Origin: Arcobacter sp. 31_11_sub10_T18
Lineage (GTDB): Bacteria > Campylobacterota > Campylobacteria > Campylobacterales > Arcobacteraceae
Reading direction: 5' to 3'
Assembly: GCA_002163065.1 (NCBI GenBank)
Contig: MAAG01000069.1
Span: forward strand, 1-39,785
DNA: 39,785 nucleotides
A program made the translations under genes and the position numbers. The notes below the pieces were generated by a model. It saw only the letters and a list, made by a program, of their open reading frames with translations. It had not been told where the DNA came from and did no database searches. Positions 14 to 6,502 of this stretch are shown piece by piece. How positions within the stretch are numbered: the first letter of the stretch is position 1; every line of letters starts with the position of its first letter.

Positions 14-1846
14 CTAAAAGTACTTATTAACGTGATTCAAAAAGTCCTCAGGATCTTTAAACCCAATCAACTCAGCTTGCTGTACCTCTTTGCCATCTTT
101 AGTCCAAAAAATTATTCCAGGAGGTCCAAAAAGATTAAACCTTTTTAATAAAGCTTTGTCATCATCATTGTTTTCAGTAACATCTGCTTGAACCAAAGTA
201 AATCCAGCTAATTTTTTCTTGACTTTTTCATCTGCAAAAGTAATGTGTTCCATCTCTTTACAAGAAATACACCAATCAGCATAAAAGTCTAACATCACTG
301 GTTTAGATGAGTTTTTAATGGCAAGGTCAAGTTCTTTGATACTTCGTACTCTTGCAAATACAACTTCAGAAGATGAAGAACTAGCAACGCCAACAGCTGT
401 GAATTTTTTAAGAGGATTTAGAGGATTCGTTGCTCCACTAATAGCTCCTACGAATAAGATTACACCAGTAAGTAATAAAATGATTGAAAATAGTTTTACT
501 AATTTTAATTCGCCTCTAGTATTTTCTTTAATAGGTGAAAATAATCCAGCATAAACCGAAGCCCCAATTAATAAAATTGCCCATAGGTACATTGTAATAG
601 TTGCGGGTAATACTCTATCTAACATCCATAAAGCAGTGGCTAACATCAATACCCCAAATACTTTGGAAACATTGTCCATCCAACCGCCAGGTTTTGGCAT
701 GAATTTTCCTGCACCCAAACCAATAAGAAGTAAAGGTACACCCATACCAATACTAAGAATAAATAACGCCGCTCCACCAAGTACAGCATCACCTGTTTGC
801 CCTATATATACCAGAGCTCCAGCAAGTGGTGCAGCTACACAAGGTCCAACTATTAATGCAGATAAAAATCCCATAATAGCTATTCCAAAGACACCTTGTT
901 TTTCTTTACCATCAGTAGTTTTAGAAAGCTTTGTCTGAAGTGATTTTGGTAATTCTAGTTTGTAATAACCAAACATGGAAAAAGCAAGTCCAACAAAAAT
1001 TGCAGAAAAAACAGATAGTACTATTGGATTTTGAAGTGCTACTTGTAAGTTTGCACCAAATACTCCCGCAAATACTCCTGCTATTGTATAAGCTGATGCC
1101 ATTGATAAAACATAAACCAGTGATAGGAAAAAACCTCTGGCTGTGGTCATCTTTTGTTTGTTTCCTTCACTTACTATGATACTTGATAAAATAGGAATCA
1201 TAGGAAAGACACAAGGAGTTAAAGATAACAATAATCCAAAACCAAAAAATGTTATCAAAATTAAAAGTACATTTCCATTTTTAAGTGATTCGGTAATAAG
1301 TCCAGCTTCACTTTGACTTGCACCTGAAATCTCTTCTGTTTTCTTGATTATAGTTGGTGCAGTAGAGTTTTCTGATGTTTTACTCAAAACAACATCAGAG
1401 TTTTTTTCTTTGATTTCAAGGTCTTTTTTTATCACATCTGCATAAGTGAATTTAAAATTATCCGTTATGGGAGCATAACAAATTCCCCCAGTTGAACAAC
1501 CTTGATATTGAAATGCCAATTCAAAATCATTTTTTCCAATTTTTTCTTCAATGAGTTTGAGAGGTACAATTATTTTTAAGTTTTCAAAAGTAACTTGTTC
1601 TCCATGATAATCTTCAGGAGTGGGTTTTGCAAGTTCACTTGAGAGTTCAATTCTTTTTGGTTTATTAATAAATACTTTTATTTTTTCATCATAAAGGTAC
1701 ATTTTTTCATATAATTCTAGTTTTAAAATAACGCTATCAGCTGTTTTGACGGCACTTGATTTAAAGGCCTCATCTGGTCCTACAAACTTTTGCTCTAAAG
1801 CAAAAGAATATATCACCATAAAAAGTATTAGTAATATTTTTTTCAT
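14..1846 (-). CDS. dsbD: Thiol:disulfide interchange protein DsbD
   Basis: Full-length DsbD (610 aa) that should carry electrons from cytoplasmic thioredoxin across the inner membrane to periplasmic thiol proteins. All three modules are visible. After a signal peptide comes an N-terminal periplasmic domain with the redox pair in QGCSTGGIC (C117, C123). The membrane domain (about residues 193-470) has the paired cysteines in [10 protein letters not shown] (C212) and [10 protein letters not shown] (C336). The C-terminal thioredoxin domain has ADWCISCKE (C526, C529). The ATG lies inside the end of the upstream DUF255 gene (4-nt overlap), so translation is probably coupled. It is the last gene of the thiol operon, and the upstream Trx-fold proteins are its likely electron acceptors. 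Identification is secure; the partners are inferred from context. Confidence 0.95.
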
Positions 1847-3897
1847 AATTTTTCATTGTCCTTAATCACTGTATTAATTTCACCAATGATTTCTTTAAAG
1901 TTTTTGCTATAAGCAAAACAAACATCCACTTTACACGCTAAATAAGTATCATCATCAGTCACTTTTCTAAGTAAAAAAGGATGATCAGGTAATATTTTAT
2001 TGGCAAGCATATTTTTATTGGCTTTTAAATTAATATAGCCTTTTTCAAATCCTATTAGAGTTCTTAATAACCAAGCAGCACTGCTGGGTTGACTAGCAAG
2101 TAATAAAGAATTGTTTTCAAAATTACTTTTAGCAAGTTCTTGTAAATCCAAATCATCATTTAATATGGCTACTTTTAAAATATTATCAATCATATTTGAT
2201 AATGAGCTTTTATAAGAGCTATCATAAACTGAAGCCATACTTTCAAACTCATCATTACTCATATACCAGTTGGAATCTTTGTAAAATTTGTCTTTGGCCT
2301 CATGGGTCAACTTAGTTGCCAGAGATAAGTATTTTTTATCCAAGGTATAGTCATACGCTTTTAGAGAAGCACTTATAATAAAAGAGTAATCCTCAAATAA
2401 ACCCGCAACTTTAGGTTTTTTATGAACCAATCTTTGGTGGTATAAAATATTGTTAACATATAATTTATCAACCAAAGTATCTAAGTACTTTAATCCAAGT
2501 TTTGAATAGTTTTCATTTATTTTTCCAGCTTCAAAGAGTGCAGAGATATACATCGCATTCCAAGCTGTTAATATTTTATAATCTACAAAAGGATATTGCC
2601 TTCTGCTTCTAAGTTCTTTTAGTAGTGTTTTAACTTTTTCTAAATTGGGGGGTACTTCTTCATCGCTGAGATAAACATTGTTCATTTGATGTTCAAAGTT
2701 ACCTGTTTCTGTGATATTAAAATAGTTTAGTATTTTTTCAATTTCTTCAGTGTTATATCCATTTTCTTTTAAGAAGTTTGAAGTTAAGGTGTAATCAAAG
2801 ACAAAATAAGCACCTTCTTCTTTTTCACTGCCCACTTGACTATCTGCGTCACTGGCACTATATAATAAATTGTTATCTTCAAATCGTATTTTAGTAAAAC
2901 TAATAAGTTCATCAACTATTTTTTTAAAAAACTTGTCTTTTGTTATTCTGTATGCTTTTGAATACACACTTAACAATTCTGCATTGGTATATAACATTTT
3001 TTCAAAATGTGGAATCATCCATTCTTCATCTACACTATATCTATAAAACCCACTCTCGATTTGATCATAGATTCCACCATTTCCCATGGCTTTTAACATT
3101 GACGTTGCCATTTCAAGAGCTTTATCATTTTTAAAAGTGGCATAGATGTCTAAAAGTGTTTCAATACTTGCTGCATGTGGGAATTTAGGTGCGGTTCCAA
3201 TTCCAGGGTTTTCTTTATCAAAAGAGTTTTCAATTTCATCTACAAATTTGTTCACCAAAGCCAAACTAAGGTCTTTTTTCTCGCCTTTATAAGCATTCTT
3301 ATACTGTTTTAAAGCCGATTCAATTTGCAAAGAAGTGCTCACCACTTTTAAAGAATCAAACTTATATACATCTGCAAGTTTGTTCAATACCTCTTTGATT
3401 CCCATACGTCCATATTTACTTACATTGGGGATATATGTTGCAGCATAGAAAGCTTTTCTTTCAGGAGTTAAGATGATATTTAAAGGCCAACCCCCTGCTC
3501 TATTGTTAAGCAGGTTATATACATCTTGATAATATTTGTCCACATGGGGCATTTCTTCTCTATCAACTTTGATTGAGATGAAGTTTTTATTTAATATTTT
3601 TGCCACTTCTTCATTTTCAAAAGATTCTTTCTCCATCACATGACACCAGTGACAAGTACTATATCCTATGGATAAAAAAATCAACTTTTTCTCTTCTTTA
3701 GCTTTTTTAAAAGCTTTGTCTCCCCATGCATACCAATCAACAGGATTGTGTGCATGTTGTTGTAAATATGGAGAGTCTTCGTTAATAAGTTCGTTTGTAA
3801 ACTTTTCTTGCGCACTCATCATTGTGAACACGCCAAACAATACAAGCAAGACTTTTTTAAATGAGAAAGTGGGTTGATTTTTTAATCCATTGAACAT
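1843..3897 (-). CDS. DUF255 thioredoxin-domain protein (YyaL/SSP411-like), probably exported
   Basis: 684-aa protein of the DUF255 family, recognised from [13 protein letters not shown] followed by a thioredoxin-like site CHWCH (C82, C85). A long C-terminal region resembles the alpha/alpha-barrel (glycosidase/epimerase-like) part of the family. The biochemical function of the family is not established. The unusual point is the N-terminus: about 30 residues precede the usual family start, with basic residues, a hydrophobic stretch ([12 protein letters not shown]) and a possible cleavage site near SAQ, so this copy looks exported. Most relatives I know start near the [14 protein letters not shown] motif with no leader. 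The ATG lies 2 nt after the stop of the DsbC/G-like gene and the gene overlaps dsbD, so it is firmly inside the thiol operon. A periplasmic redox role reduced by DsbD is inference. Confidence 0.88.
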
Positions 3898-3899
3898 TT

Positions 3900-4739
3900 C
3901 TAATTACCTAAAGCGCCAAATAGTTTTCTTGATTTATCATTTTTACCATTAACATAAATTGTTGGCGTTCCTTGGATTCGCATTGCTTCACCCATAGTCA
4001 TGTCTGATTGAACTTCATCAACTGCTTTGGCTGTTTTTAACTCTTCCATTGTAATATTTGTTTTAAACGCTTTGTTAAAACCATCTAAAATTGTAGCTGA
4101 GTTTGTTTCTCTTGCATTAAAGTAGTTGCTAAAGTTAGTTAAGTACATTGTCATTTCTACATCTTTAACACCCTTTTCTTTTGCAATAACCATTGCTCTA
4201 CTTAAATCAAGCGCTGCAGGATGAAGACTGATAAGTGGGAAGTGATAGTAGTATAATGCGATATCATCTGGATTTGCATTAACTTTTTGAATCATTCCAG
4301 GAATAGTTTGTTGACAATAAGGACAAAGAGGATCAGAGAAAACCACTACTTTATTTTTTGCATTTTCATTTCCTGCAATTAAATTCTTTTTTTGATAATA
4401 TTTAGCAGTTAATTTTGGTTCAAAGATAGTTTTATAACTTGACCCATCTTTCATATTTAATAAGTCAGTTGAAACTGCTTCACCATTTGAAAACAAAATG
4501 TCATTTCCACTTACAACTCCACGACCTGGTACATCAGCAGTTATTTTTAACATATAACCATACCAACCAGGAACCCCTAATGATTCTTTTTTCTCTACAA
4601 CTACTTTTTGTAATGAAATACCTTGATTTGCTAAAAATCTCATTTTTTCAAAATCAATCACTTTTTGATCAACAGCAGCTGATGCAAATAATGATGCTCC
4701 TAATAATAATGTTGATACCCCATATTTAAATAATTTCAT
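3900..4739 (-). CDS. DsbC/DsbG-like periplasmic thiol:disulfide protein
   Basis: 279 aa with a clear signal peptide (cleavage near ASA, residue 21), an N-terminal region of about 100 residues that could be a dimerisation domain, and a DsbA/DsbC-type thioredoxin domain with CPYC (C139, C142). The cis-proline motif is GTPTIYVNG near the C-terminus. DsbC/G proteins isomerise or reduce wrong disulfides and are kept reduced by DsbD, which is encoded two genes downstream. The CPYC pair also occurs in other Dsb proteins, so isomerase versus oxidase or reductase cannot be settled from sequence. It sits in the operon between the small thioredoxin (23-nt gap) and the DUF255 gene (2-nt gap). Confidence 0.85.
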
Positions 4740-4762: not shown

Positions 4763-5122
4763 TTAGTTAAATTTTTCGTAAATACTTTCTTTGATTTCAG
4801 TGGGGGATTTTACACCCATTTCAGTCGAAATTAGTTTACCATTTTTTAAATAAAGAATGGTAGGAAGTGCACGGATTGAGTACATCTGAGTCAATTCTCT
4901 TTGCTGTTCAATATCCACTTTATATAAGGTCACTCCAAGTTCATTTAAGTCAACTTTATTGAAGTTTTTTTCCAATGCTCTACAGTTTGGACACCAAGTC
5001 GCATGAAACTTCACAATGGTATTTTTGCCACTGATTTTTTCACTAAAATTCTCTTTAGTAATTTCTTCATAAGCAAATAAAGAAACAACAGTAAAGGCCA
5101 TCATTAATAAAATCTTTTTCAT
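4763..5122 (-). CDS. Small exported thioredoxin
   Basis: 119-aa single-domain thioredoxin with an N-terminal signal peptide (MKKILLMMAFTVVSLFAYEE). The active site is WCPNC (C44, C47) rather than the cytoplasmic WCGPC, and the cis-proline lies in RALPTIL. The exported location and the CPNC site suggest a periplasmic reductant or carrier fed by DsbD. It starts 9 nt after the stop of the TlpA-like gene and precedes the DsbC/G-like gene, all on the same strand. The substrate is unknown. Confidence 0.85.
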   Translation of the reverse strand: MKKILLMMAFTVVSLFAYEEITKENFSEKISGKNTIVKFHATWCPNCRALEKNFNKVDLNELGVTLYKVDIEQQRELTQMYSIRALPTILYLKNGKLISTEMGVKSPTEIKESIYEKFN

Positions 5123-5131
5123 GTTATCTCC

Positions 5132-5656
5132 TTATTCCGCTTTGAGTAAATCCATATAACCAATAATTTCATTTGCATCAGCATGAAAATCATTAAACCG
5201 TACTACTCCATTTTTATCAATAATTACAGTCCATGGTGTTCCACCACTTCTATAATTTCTCATAAACTCAGATTTTTTGTCACTACTTCCACTGTGTCCT
5301 ATTGGCATAGTTAAAGAATATTTTTTAATAATATCTTTGGCTGCATTTACAGAGTTAACCATAAATCCTTCAAAAACTGTTTGAATCGCCACAAAAGCTA
5401 CTTTATCATCTCCTTGATAATGAGAAGAGAGTTTTTGCAAAGTAGGAAAACCATGAGAATGACATCCTGGACACCAAGCTTGAAAACCATAAAGGTACAA
5501 TACTTTCCCCTTGTAATCTTCAATATCTATCTTTGAAGCACCATTAGACTGTACCCAAGTATCTACACCAAAACTTGGTGCTTTTTGACCTTGAATACCC
5601 AAAGCAAACACATTTAAAGAAAATACAAATGTAAGTAATAAAAGTTTAAATTTCAT
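5132..5656 (-). CDS. TlpA/peroxiredoxin-like periplasmic redoxin
   Basis: 174 aa with a signal peptide (about 19 residues) and an AhpC/TSA-TlpA-type thioredoxin fold. The active site is WCPGC (C62, C65), followed by GTPWTVIIDKNG with the cis-proline. Proteins of this type are periplasmic thiol reductases or thiol-peroxidase-like redoxins. It is the first gene of the five-gene thiol operon and lies directly behind the promoter element shared with the rhodanese gene. Whether it reduces cytochrome apoproteins, peroxides or sulfur compounds cannot be told from sequence. Confidence 0.8.
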   Translation of the reverse strand: MKFKLLLLTFVFSLNVFALGIQGQKAPSFGVDTWVQSNGASKIDIEDYKGKVLYLYGFQAWCPGCHSHGFPTLQKLSSHYQGDDKVAFVAIQTVFEGFMVNSVNAAKDIIKKYSLTMPIGHSGSSDKKSEFMRNYRSGGTPWTVIIDKNGVVRFNDFHADANEIIGYMDLLKAE

Positions 5657-5676: not shown

Positions 5677-5709
5677 TGTTATTATATTTGGCTTTCGTGT
5701 AGGATTTGT
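5677..5709 (-). promoter_or_regulatory. Promoter of the thiol operon, copy 1 of a twin element
   Basis: On the minus strand the sequence reads ACAAATCCTACAC, 10 nt, then TATAATAACA, 21 nt before the ATG of the TlpA-like gene. TATAAT is a perfect -10 hexamer, but no TTGACA-like -35 exists. The conserved 13-mer occupies the -35 position, as expected for an activator-dependent promoter. The same arrangement is found before the rhodanese gene. Confidence 0.7.
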
Positions 5710-5738
5710 AAAGAGAAAGGATTGAAACCTTTTTTCTT
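5710..5738 (-). terminator. Weak hairpin after the rhodanese gene
   Basis: An imperfect inverted repeat (about AAAGAGAAAGG against CCTTTTTTCTTT, 7-nt loop) lies just past the rhodanese stop and just before the thiol-operon promoter. It may end rhodanese transcription. The arms are A/T rich and there is no clean U tract, so confidence is low. Confidence 0.3.
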
Positions 5739-5739
5739 T

Positions 5740-6147
5740 TTATTTGACAGTTTTTTTATTGTCTTTCATCCAAGATACAATTCCACCTTCTAGGTGATAT
5801 ACATTTTTATATCCAGCTTTTTGAGATAGAAAATCTCCAACGATTCCTGTTCTTCGGGCACTTCTACATACCAAAATAAATTTCTGATTTTTATTTTTTA
5901 CTATTTTTTCAAACTGGCTCATCCATTTTGATAAATCGTATTTTCCTTTTTCATCAAAAAATGTCAGTTTATGAGAACTAGGAACCACCCCAGTATCACT
6001 CCATTCATCTAACCTTCTTATATCAATGACCGAAATTCCTTCTTTTATTGCAGCTTCCAAGTTTTCATTTGATATTGTTTTAAAATCAGCATACAAAAAC
6101 GATGTGAAGATGAACATACTTAAAATGCTTAGTATTATTTTTTTCAT
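5740..6147 (-). CDS. Exported single-domain rhodanese
   Basis: 135 aa with a signal peptide (MKKIILSILSMFIFTSFLYA) and one rhodanese domain. The active-site loop is VCRSARRTG with the sulfur-carrying cysteine at C94. GYKNVYHLEGGIVSWM is the typical C-terminal signature. Exported rhodaneses carry persulfide sulfur in the periplasm, and the arginine-rich loop suits an anionic donor such as thiosulfate. That substrate is inference. The gene has its own promoter, almost identical in design to that of the downstream thiol operon, which suggests co-regulation. Confidence 0.88.
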   Translation of the reverse strand: MKKIILSILSMFIFTSFLYADFKTISNENLEAAIKEGISVIDIRRLDEWSDTGVVPSSHKLTFFDEKGKYDLSKWMSQFEKIVKNKNQKFILVCRSARRTGIVGDFLSQKAGYKNVYHLEGGIVSWMKDNKKTVK

Positions 6148-6172
6148 GATTTCTCTTATTATAGATTGTTAG

Positions 6173-6205
6173 TGTTATTATAATTTGTGAGTGTGTAAGA
6201 TTTGT
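6173..6205 (-). promoter_or_regulatory. Promoter of the rhodanese gene, copy 2 of the twin element
   Basis: The minus strand reads ACAAATCTTACAC, 10 nt, TATAATAACA. It matches the thiol-operon promoter at 22 of 23 specified positions with identical spacing. The predicted start site lies about 20 nt before the ATG. A second TATAAT at 6158-6163 is too close to the ATG to leave room for a leader. Confidence 0.7.
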
Positions 6206-6213
6206 GGAGTTTT

Positions 6214-6286: not shown

Positions 6287-6502
6287 TTATTTTTGAGCGT
6301 CTTGTAATACTTTTATCACTTCAGCAAGATTGTCATAAGGGATATGAGACTTCCACTCAACATCTTTACCATTTAATGCAATTCCAATACTAACCACATC
6401 ACCACTACCTGCACCGTACGGTTCTTTTACATCCATAATTGAAATAATACCTTTTTTCGTACCTGCTAAACCGATTTTAGCCAGTTGTGTTTCATTTGCC
6501 AT
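6287..6502 (-). CDS. Conserved-looking 71-aa protein of unknown function
   Basis: A 71-aa soluble protein without signal peptide, membrane segment or cysteine. It begins MANETQLAKIGLAGTKKG. A strong ribosome site (AAAAGGAG, about 5 nt before the ATG) supports real expression. The sequence alternates short beta-like stretches with turns (GIISIMDV, YGAGSGDVVSIGIAL) and ends in a predicted helix. I do not recognise a family. It lies between the Cache-EAL gene and the rhodanese gene and is followed by the 12-bp inverted repeat, so it may be monocistronic or follow the EAL gene (32-nt gap from the EAL stop). Confidence 0.75.
   Translation of the reverse strand: MANETQLAKIGLAGTKKGIISIMDVKEPYGAGSGDVVSIGIALNGKDVEWKSHIPYDNLAEVIKVLQDAQK

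What the first reader, a model, noticed from the sequence alone, without database searches (positions are those of the whole stretch)
5677..6205. Twin promoter element for the rhodanese gene and the thiol operon
On the minus strand ACAAATCYTACAC-N10-TATAATAACA occurs before both genes (5677-5709 and 6173-6205). It matches at 22 of 23 fixed positions with identical spacing, although the surrounding sequence differs. The 13-mer sits at the -35 position where no TTGACA exists. I infer an activator site that co-regulates exported sulfur and thiol proteins. I do not recognise the motif as a known Campylobacterota regulator site.
Basis: partly seen in the sequence, partly recalled or inferred. Interest (0 to 1): 0.68.

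Follow-up and report, generated by a model that had tools for sequence, protein, structure and literature searches.

The report
Operator for an envelope thiol-stress regulon
The twin DNA element is very probably the docking site of a bacterial two-component stress regulator, because the same spaced double repeat sits before dozens of genes that repair oxidised or copper-damaged proteins in the cell envelope across this bacterial family, and it is lost or altered where that regulator is missing.

Summary
The conserved unit is not the 13-mer but two hexamers in 11-bp direct repeat, nine bases before a -10 box: T(A/T)(A/C)ACA-N5-T(A/T)NACA-N9-TATAAT, the geometry of OmpR/PhoB-family class II activators. 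Across 40 Arcobacteraceae genomes it occurs 124 times against 16 for the reversed pattern; 58 of 82 variable-gap matches have exactly N9. Downstream genes share a theme: periplasmic thiol-disulfide repair (Trx-DsbD, TlpA, DsbB, DsbH), methionine sulfoxide repair (MsrP, MsrA), copper handling (HvfA-like metallophore, PCuAC, P460/cupredoxin) and ovothiol synthase.

[quoted passage not shown] Its own promoter carries the element in 28 of 34 loci, this genome included. At trx-dsbD the element is present in 36 of 37 genomes with RR-A; in 11 complete same-genus genomes without RR-A the gene remains but the repeats are altered or gone. A Cus-linked regulator (RR-B) does not track the element, though binding is not excluded.

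Binding, activation and the copper/oxidant signal are predicted, not shown.

The parts
6177..6208 (-). Element 1, rhodanese promoter: hexamer TCCACA (6203-6208), 5-bp spacer, hexamer TACACA (6192-6197), 9-bp spacer, -10 TATAAT (6177-6182)
   Evidence: Sequence; top matrix hit in the window, 0 expected by chance
5681..5712 (-). Element 2, tlpA operon promoter: hexamer TTTACA (5707-5712), 5-bp spacer, hexamer TACACG (5696-5701), 9-bp spacer, -10 TATAAT (5681-5686)
   Evidence: Sequence; second matrix hit in the window, 0.3 expected by chance; conserved upstream of tlpA orthologs
5740..6147 (-). Rhodanese gene, 135 aa with signal-like N terminus; target of element 1
   Evidence: Pfam PF00581, E 6.8e-14
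5132..5656 (-). TlpA/ResA-like thiol-disulfide oxidoreductase, 174 aa; first gene after element 2
   Evidence: Pfam Redoxin/AhpC-TSA; ResA-like below NCBIfam cutoff
4763..5122 (-). Exported thioredoxin
   Evidence: Pfam PF00085, E 4.8e-19
3900..4739 (-). DsbA/DsbG-like exported thioredoxin-fold protein
   Evidence: Pfam Thioredoxin_4 and DSBA
1843..3897 (-). DsbH/DUF255-type protein
   Evidence: Pfam PF03190, E 6e-69
14..1846 (-). DsbD, thiol-disulfide reductase
   Evidence: NCBIfam NF001419 above cutoff, 537 vs 330 bits

Best explanation
Each copy is the operator of a class II activated promoter. Two subunits of an OmpR/PhoB-family response regulator (RR-A; own genome G000:C153:857-1519, with its sensor kinase HK-A at 1506-2669) bind the tandem hexamers T(A/T)(A/C)ACA-N5-T(A/T)NACA. 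If TATAAT is -12 to -7, the hexamers cover about -38 to -22, replace a -35 box and recruit RNA polymerase. RR-A controls its own operon and a regulon of envelope repair and copper-handling genes, so the rhodanese gene and the tlpA-trx-dsb-dsbH-dsbD operon switch on together. HK-A probably senses oxidative, thiol or copper stress in the periplasm. Shown by computation: the motif, its spacing, its gene set, its presence at the RR-A promoter and its covariation with RR-A. Inferred: binding, activation, phosphorylation and the signal.
For: Strict pattern 124 hits vs 16 reversed-control hits in 40 genomes. Fixed N9 spacing in 58 of 82 variable-gap matches. Coherent downstream genes. Element at tlpA orthologs in RR-A+ genomes 5/5, absent in this layout in three RR-A- genomes of genus g8. 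RR-A promoter carries the element in 28 of 34 loci, own genome included. trx-dsbD promoter: 36 of 37 RR-A+ genomes score at least 16.6, 2 of 32 RR-A- reach 16, and those two are only 76% and 87% complete. Within genus g11 17/17 vs 0/11 complete genomes. RR-A has receiver and winged-helix domains.
Against: No experiment. Genomes are related, so p-values overstate independence. Exceptions: G031 has element-bearing promoters but no RR-A was found (fragmented, about 290 contigs); G021 has RR-A but no element at dsbD; six RR-A loci lack the element at their own promoter. RR-A and RR-B recognition helices are similar, so RR-B may also bind. In some RR-A- genomes both hexamers change alike (TAAACT, TTTACT), which could mean retuning to another regulator and not simple decay. 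The tlpA site in the window is a weak match.
Confidence: 0.74

Rival explanations
1. The element is the operator of the Cus-linked regulator RR-B (own copy G000:C112:730-1383), a pair encoded next to CusCBA copper efflux genes, and not of RR-A.
For: In G032, G018, G100, G101 and G102 an RR-B gene is divergent from an element-bearing yceI or metallophore promoter; in G005, G060, G002 and G017 the element lies between cusA and yceI/hvfA in the same cluster. Similar recognition helix.
Against: G010, G026, G066 and G062 keep RR-B, CusCBA and yceI but lack RR-A, and there both yceI and trx-dsbD lack the element.
Confidence: 0.15
2. RR-A binds there but represses: the repeats overlap the core promoter and block RNA polymerase until a signal releases them.
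For: Overlap with the core promoter alone does not fix the sign of regulation.
Against: There is no TTGACA-like -35 for an independent polymerase contact, and the distance to the -10 is fixed, as in activators modelled to contact sigma (PhoB, PMC3348028; PhoP, PMC3413638).
Confidence: 0.08
3. Constitutive sigma-70 promoters of a family-specific type; the upstream repeats are a polymerase preference and not an operator.
For: The -10 is near-perfect and the family is AT-rich.
Against: Only a few sites per genome, nearly all before functionally related genes; presence covaries with one regulator gene.
Confidence: 0.04
4. Chance or local duplication: the two window sites resemble each other by accident or by copying.
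For: Spacer AATC and the trailing AACA are shared by the two copies but not by relatives; the pair alone has a simulated chance of about 1%.
Against: The hexamers, their phase and the N9 gap recur before orthologous and unrelated genes in many genera.
Confidence: 0.02

Closest known systems
E. coli PhoB and the pho box
   Same: Head-to-tail direct repeats over the -35 region, receiver plus winged-helix regulator, modelled contact with sigma (PMC3348028)
   Different: TGTCA-type half-sites (own knowledge), phosphate signal; RR-A scores 97.6-140.9 bits against PhoB models with cutoffs 270-471
E. coli CusSR / HprSR control of msrPQ
   Same: Two-component control of MsrP together with copper export, two regulators sharing a box (PMC9302797)
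   Different: Box is the palindrome CATTACAAAATTGTAATG; RR-A fails the CusR/CopR model, 100.8 vs 279.2 bits; regulon here adds DsbD/Trx, metallophore and ovothiol synthase
Salmonella CpxR control of scsABCD
   Same: Two-component control of a DsbD/TlpA/DsbG-like copper-protection operon (Lopez et al. 2018, cited in PMC8966772)
   Different: RR-A fails the CpxR model, 95.2 vs 341 bits; different half-site
H. pylori HP1043 (HsrA) / C. jejuni CosR
   Same: Campylobacterota OmpR-family regulator; two hexamers with 5-bp spacer overlapping the promoter (PMC8345958)
   Different: TTTAAG half-sites at -42 to -26, orphan regulator working without phosphorylation; here ACA-type half-sites at about -38 to -22 and a linked kinase
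M. tuberculosis PhoP
   Same: Direct repeats overlapping -35 at some promoters, proposed class II activation, autoregulation (PMC3413638)
   Different: Unrelated regulon; repeats of other sequence and a third repeat

Membership tests
OmpR/PhoB-type tandem operator with class II promoter | Two similar half-sites in direct repeat about one helical turn (10-11 bp) apart | tested here: met
   Hexamers 11 bp apart; ACA invariant or nearly so in both halves of 83 sites, with the caveat that the search pattern required it; orthologous sites found without the pattern agree
OmpR/PhoB-type tandem operator with class II promoter | Fixed placement over the -35 region relative to the -10 | tested here: met
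   N9 in 58 of 82 matches with gap free from 4 to 14
OmpR/PhoB-type tandem operator with class II promoter | Cognate regulator with receiver and winged-helix domains | tested here: met
   RR-A: PF00072 and PF00486; link to the element rests on covariation and autoregulatory sites
OmpR/PhoB-type tandem operator with class II promoter | Regulator binds the repeats and activates | not testable with these tools
   Needs footprinting and transcription assays
CusR/CopR/SilR heavy-metal regulators (TIGR01387) | Score above curated cutoff | tested here: not met
   RR-A 100.8 vs 279.2 bits
CpxR (NF008199) | Score above curated cutoff | tested here: not met
   RR-A 95.2 vs 341 bits
HP1043/CosR box | TTTAAG-N5-TTTAAG at -42 to -26 | tested here: not met
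   Half-sites are T(A/T)(A/C)ACA and lie about 4 bp closer to the -10 (paper)
Crp/Fnr-type site | Inverted repeat such as TGTAAC-N4-GTTACA | tested here: not met
   Window sites are not palindromic; such palindromes occur in the RR-A- genus g8
Ordinary sigma-70 promoter | TTGACA-like -35 about 17 bp before the -10 | tested here: not met
   Both window promoters read ACAAAT there; the -10 itself is a perfect TATAAT

The most novel reading that the evidence does not exclude
A hitherto undescribed two-component system (RR-A/HK-A) is the master regulator of envelope thiol, methionine and copper repair in Arcobacteraceae. Its kinase reads periplasmic redox state or copper through a conserved cysteine just outside the membrane (19 of 19 aligned kinases; a second cysteine in 14 of 19), and lineages that lost the system rewired the same promoters to another regulator.
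Probability: 0.4. Interest if true: 0.72.

Novelty: new member of a known kind. Interest (0 to 1): 0.58.

Why it matters
In gamma-proteobacteria the repair of oxidised or copper-damaged envelope proteins is spread over CusR, HprR and CpxR. Here one site type joins disulfide reduction (DsbD/Trx/TlpA), methionine sulfoxide repair (MsrP/MsrA), a copper-binding RiPP, a P460 heme protein and ovothiol synthase, in a phylum whose envelope stress control is little known. The prediction names the regulator, the operator, the critical bases and natural loss cases, so it can be tested directly. It also gives a functional context to poorly understood members such as the exported rhodanese, DsbH and the DUF3179 protein.

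Tried and rejected
(1) The literal 13-mer as the motif: rejected, because only the two hexamers and the -10 recur; the AATCY part is spacer. (2) The Spy/CpxP-RR-HK cluster next to tlpA in G032 and G009 as regulator: rejected, because the spy promoters carry GATTAA-N5-GATTAA repeats and not this motif. (3) Crp/Fnr-type regulator: in genus g8 the tlpA operon contains a Crp/Fnr-like gene and nearby promoters carry TGTAAC-N4-GTTACA palindromes, but the window sites are not palindromic. (4) RR-B as sole regulator: see rivals. (5) CemR/HP1021 of A. butzleri: the paper gave no motif to compare. (6) Sensor fold of HK-A (mean pLDDT 85): no PDB match below E 0.001; weak matches to WalK, PhoQ, CzcS and silver-bound CusS leave the ligand open. 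(7) The own-genome match before an O-acetylhomoserine sulfhydrylase-like gene (C37:1995) is 176 bp from the start codon and may be chance. (9) No paper describing this motif or regulator was found in the held library; absence there is not proof.

Full report
WHAT WAS CLAIMED AND CHECKED. The window lies in an incomplete genome (G000, 74.5% complete) of the family called f1 here; named relatives of its regulator gene (Aliarcobacter, Arcobacter) point to Arcobacteraceae. The second promoter heads tlpA, thioredoxin, a DsbA/DsbG-like gene, dsbH and dsbD. They are the only exact matches in the own genome.

WHAT THE ELEMENT IS. Upstream regions of tlpA orthologs from other genera read TTAACA-TAAAC-TACACA-N9-TAAAAT (G009), TTAACA-ATCAC-TAAACA-N9-TAAAAT (G032), TTAACA-ATCAC-TACACA-N9-TAAAAT (G107) and TTAACA-AAAAC-TACACA-N9-TAAACT (G015, G117). 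So the conserved parts are two hexamers 11 bp apart and the -10, not the 13-mer. Many relatives instead have a trx-dsbD or dsbD operon divergent from a rhodanese gene, and its promoter reads TTAACA-AACTC-TTTACA-N9-TATAAT or close to it.

SIGNIFICANCE. A strict pattern gave 124 matches in 40 genomes against 16 for the same pattern read backwards. With the gap to TATAAT left free between 4 and 14, 58 of 82 matches had exactly 9 and no other gap had more than 6. In the window, a matrix trained on other promoters ranks exactly these two sites first and second. The similarity of the two window copies alone has a simulated chance of about 1%.

THE REGULON. Genes shortly downstream of matches include exported thioredoxin-DsbD, DsbD, TlpA-like proteins, DsbB, a DsbA-like protein, DsbH, MsrP, MsrA, YceI, MlaA, PCuAC, an HvfA-like metallophore precursor, a P460-like heme protein, ExbB and an HMA-like small protein (the HMA name is from my reading of the sequence). 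In the own genome further sites precede a P460-like protein followed by a cupredoxin, an OvoA ovothiol synthase and a DUF3179 protein. An OvoA-like gene also has a site in G107. Some listed matches are likely chance, for example before a ribosomal protein gene in G004.

THE REGULATOR. A match before a response regulator gene in G118 led to RR-A, present in 62 of 104 family genomes when E of 1e-75 or better is required. The RR-A promoter carries the element 20-35 nt before the start codon in 28 of 34 loci, including the own genome (TACACA-AAAGA-TAAACA-N9-TAAAAT, L257:794-825, 31 nt before the start). The test that separates candidates used the trx-dsbD promoter, scored with a matrix trained without trx/dsbD sites. 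Of RR-A+ genomes 36 of 37 score at least 16.6; of RR-A- genomes 2 of 32 reach 16, and those two assemblies are 76% and 87% complete. In genus g11 the split is 17/17 against 0/11 among complete genomes (five of the 17 were read). In most RR-A- members of g11 the promoter stays in place with its -10 while the hexamers change, for example TAAACT-N5-TTTACT. G010, G026, G066 and G062 still have RR-B with CusCBA and yceI, yet yceI lacks the element; three of them carry GATTAA-N5-GATTAA there instead. So RR-A, not RR-B, predicts the element. Related genomes are not independent, so the p-values overstate the case. RR-A and RR-B are about 42% identical with similar recognition helices, so cross-binding is possible, as two E. 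coli regulators share the msrPQ box (PMC9302797).

MECHANISM. Shown by sequence: tandem hexamers, fixed spacing, no -35 consensus, gene set, site at the regulator's own promoter, covariation. Inferred from known OmpR/PhoB members: tandem dimer on direct repeats, contact with sigma, phosphorylation-dependent activation (PMC3348028, PMC3413638). The signal is inferred from gene content. HK-A has a short periplasmic domain between two transmembrane helices with one cysteine kept in 19 of 19 kinases that aligned over this region and a second in 14 of 19; the own kinase has only the first. The predicted sensor fold finds only weak matches, to WalK, PhoQ and CusS-type sensors, so copper, thiol redox or oxidant remain open.

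WIDER VIEW. In other families of the order the strict pattern also exceeds its control. Two subclasses appear: TACACA-type sites before HvfA-like, P460-like and CusA-like genes, and TTAACA-N5-TTAACA sites before TonB-type receptors, NosL-like proteins and ExbB (these names are from my reading of the sequences, not a profile search). This suggests sister regulators for copper excess and copper shortage, which was not tested.

VERDICT. It is a well-defined regulon of a known kind (OmpR-family two-component control of envelope redox and copper stress) with a named, testable and apparently undescribed regulator.

Noticed in passing
L387 14200-14325, L388 16990-17100, L390 14110-14235; spy promoters in L070 and L071: In RR-A- genomes the yceI promoter carries GATTAA-N5-GATTAA, the same repeat seen before spy-like genes next to another two-component pair; this looks like promoter rewiring to a different OmpR-type regulator.
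   Followed up: partly
G066, G010, G067 (L347-L349): In the trx-dsbD promoter of RR-A- genomes both hexamers change in the same way (TAAACT, TTTACT) with spacing kept, which could be retuning to another regulator and not decay.
   Followed up: no
L296, L299-L301, L303, L308, L314; L116, L174, L177, L138: TTAACA-N5-TTAACA sites with the same N9 gap precede TonB-type receptors, NosL-like proteins, ExbB and PCuAC, suggesting a sister regulon for copper shortage.
   Followed up: partly
L072 and L073 (genus g8): In these RR-A- genomes the tlpA operon contains a Crp/Fnr-like regulator gene, and nearby promoters carry TGTAAC-N4-GTTACA-type palindromes.
   Followed up: no
L164, L167, L172 (genus g19): ATCACATTAATTWCACA-N9-TATAAT recurs before a conserved 135-aa protein with no NCBIfam match; possibly a further regulon member of unknown function.
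   Followed up: no
window 6287-6502 (-): A 71-aa ORF upstream of the rhodanese gene has no Pfam or NCBIfam match; it may be a small unknown protein.
   Followed up: no
L258 10829-12686, L251, L252, L260: HvfA-like metallophore precursor with HvfB-type maturase and HvfC-like partner sit beside CusCBA and the RR-B pair, with yceI in front.
   Followed up: partly
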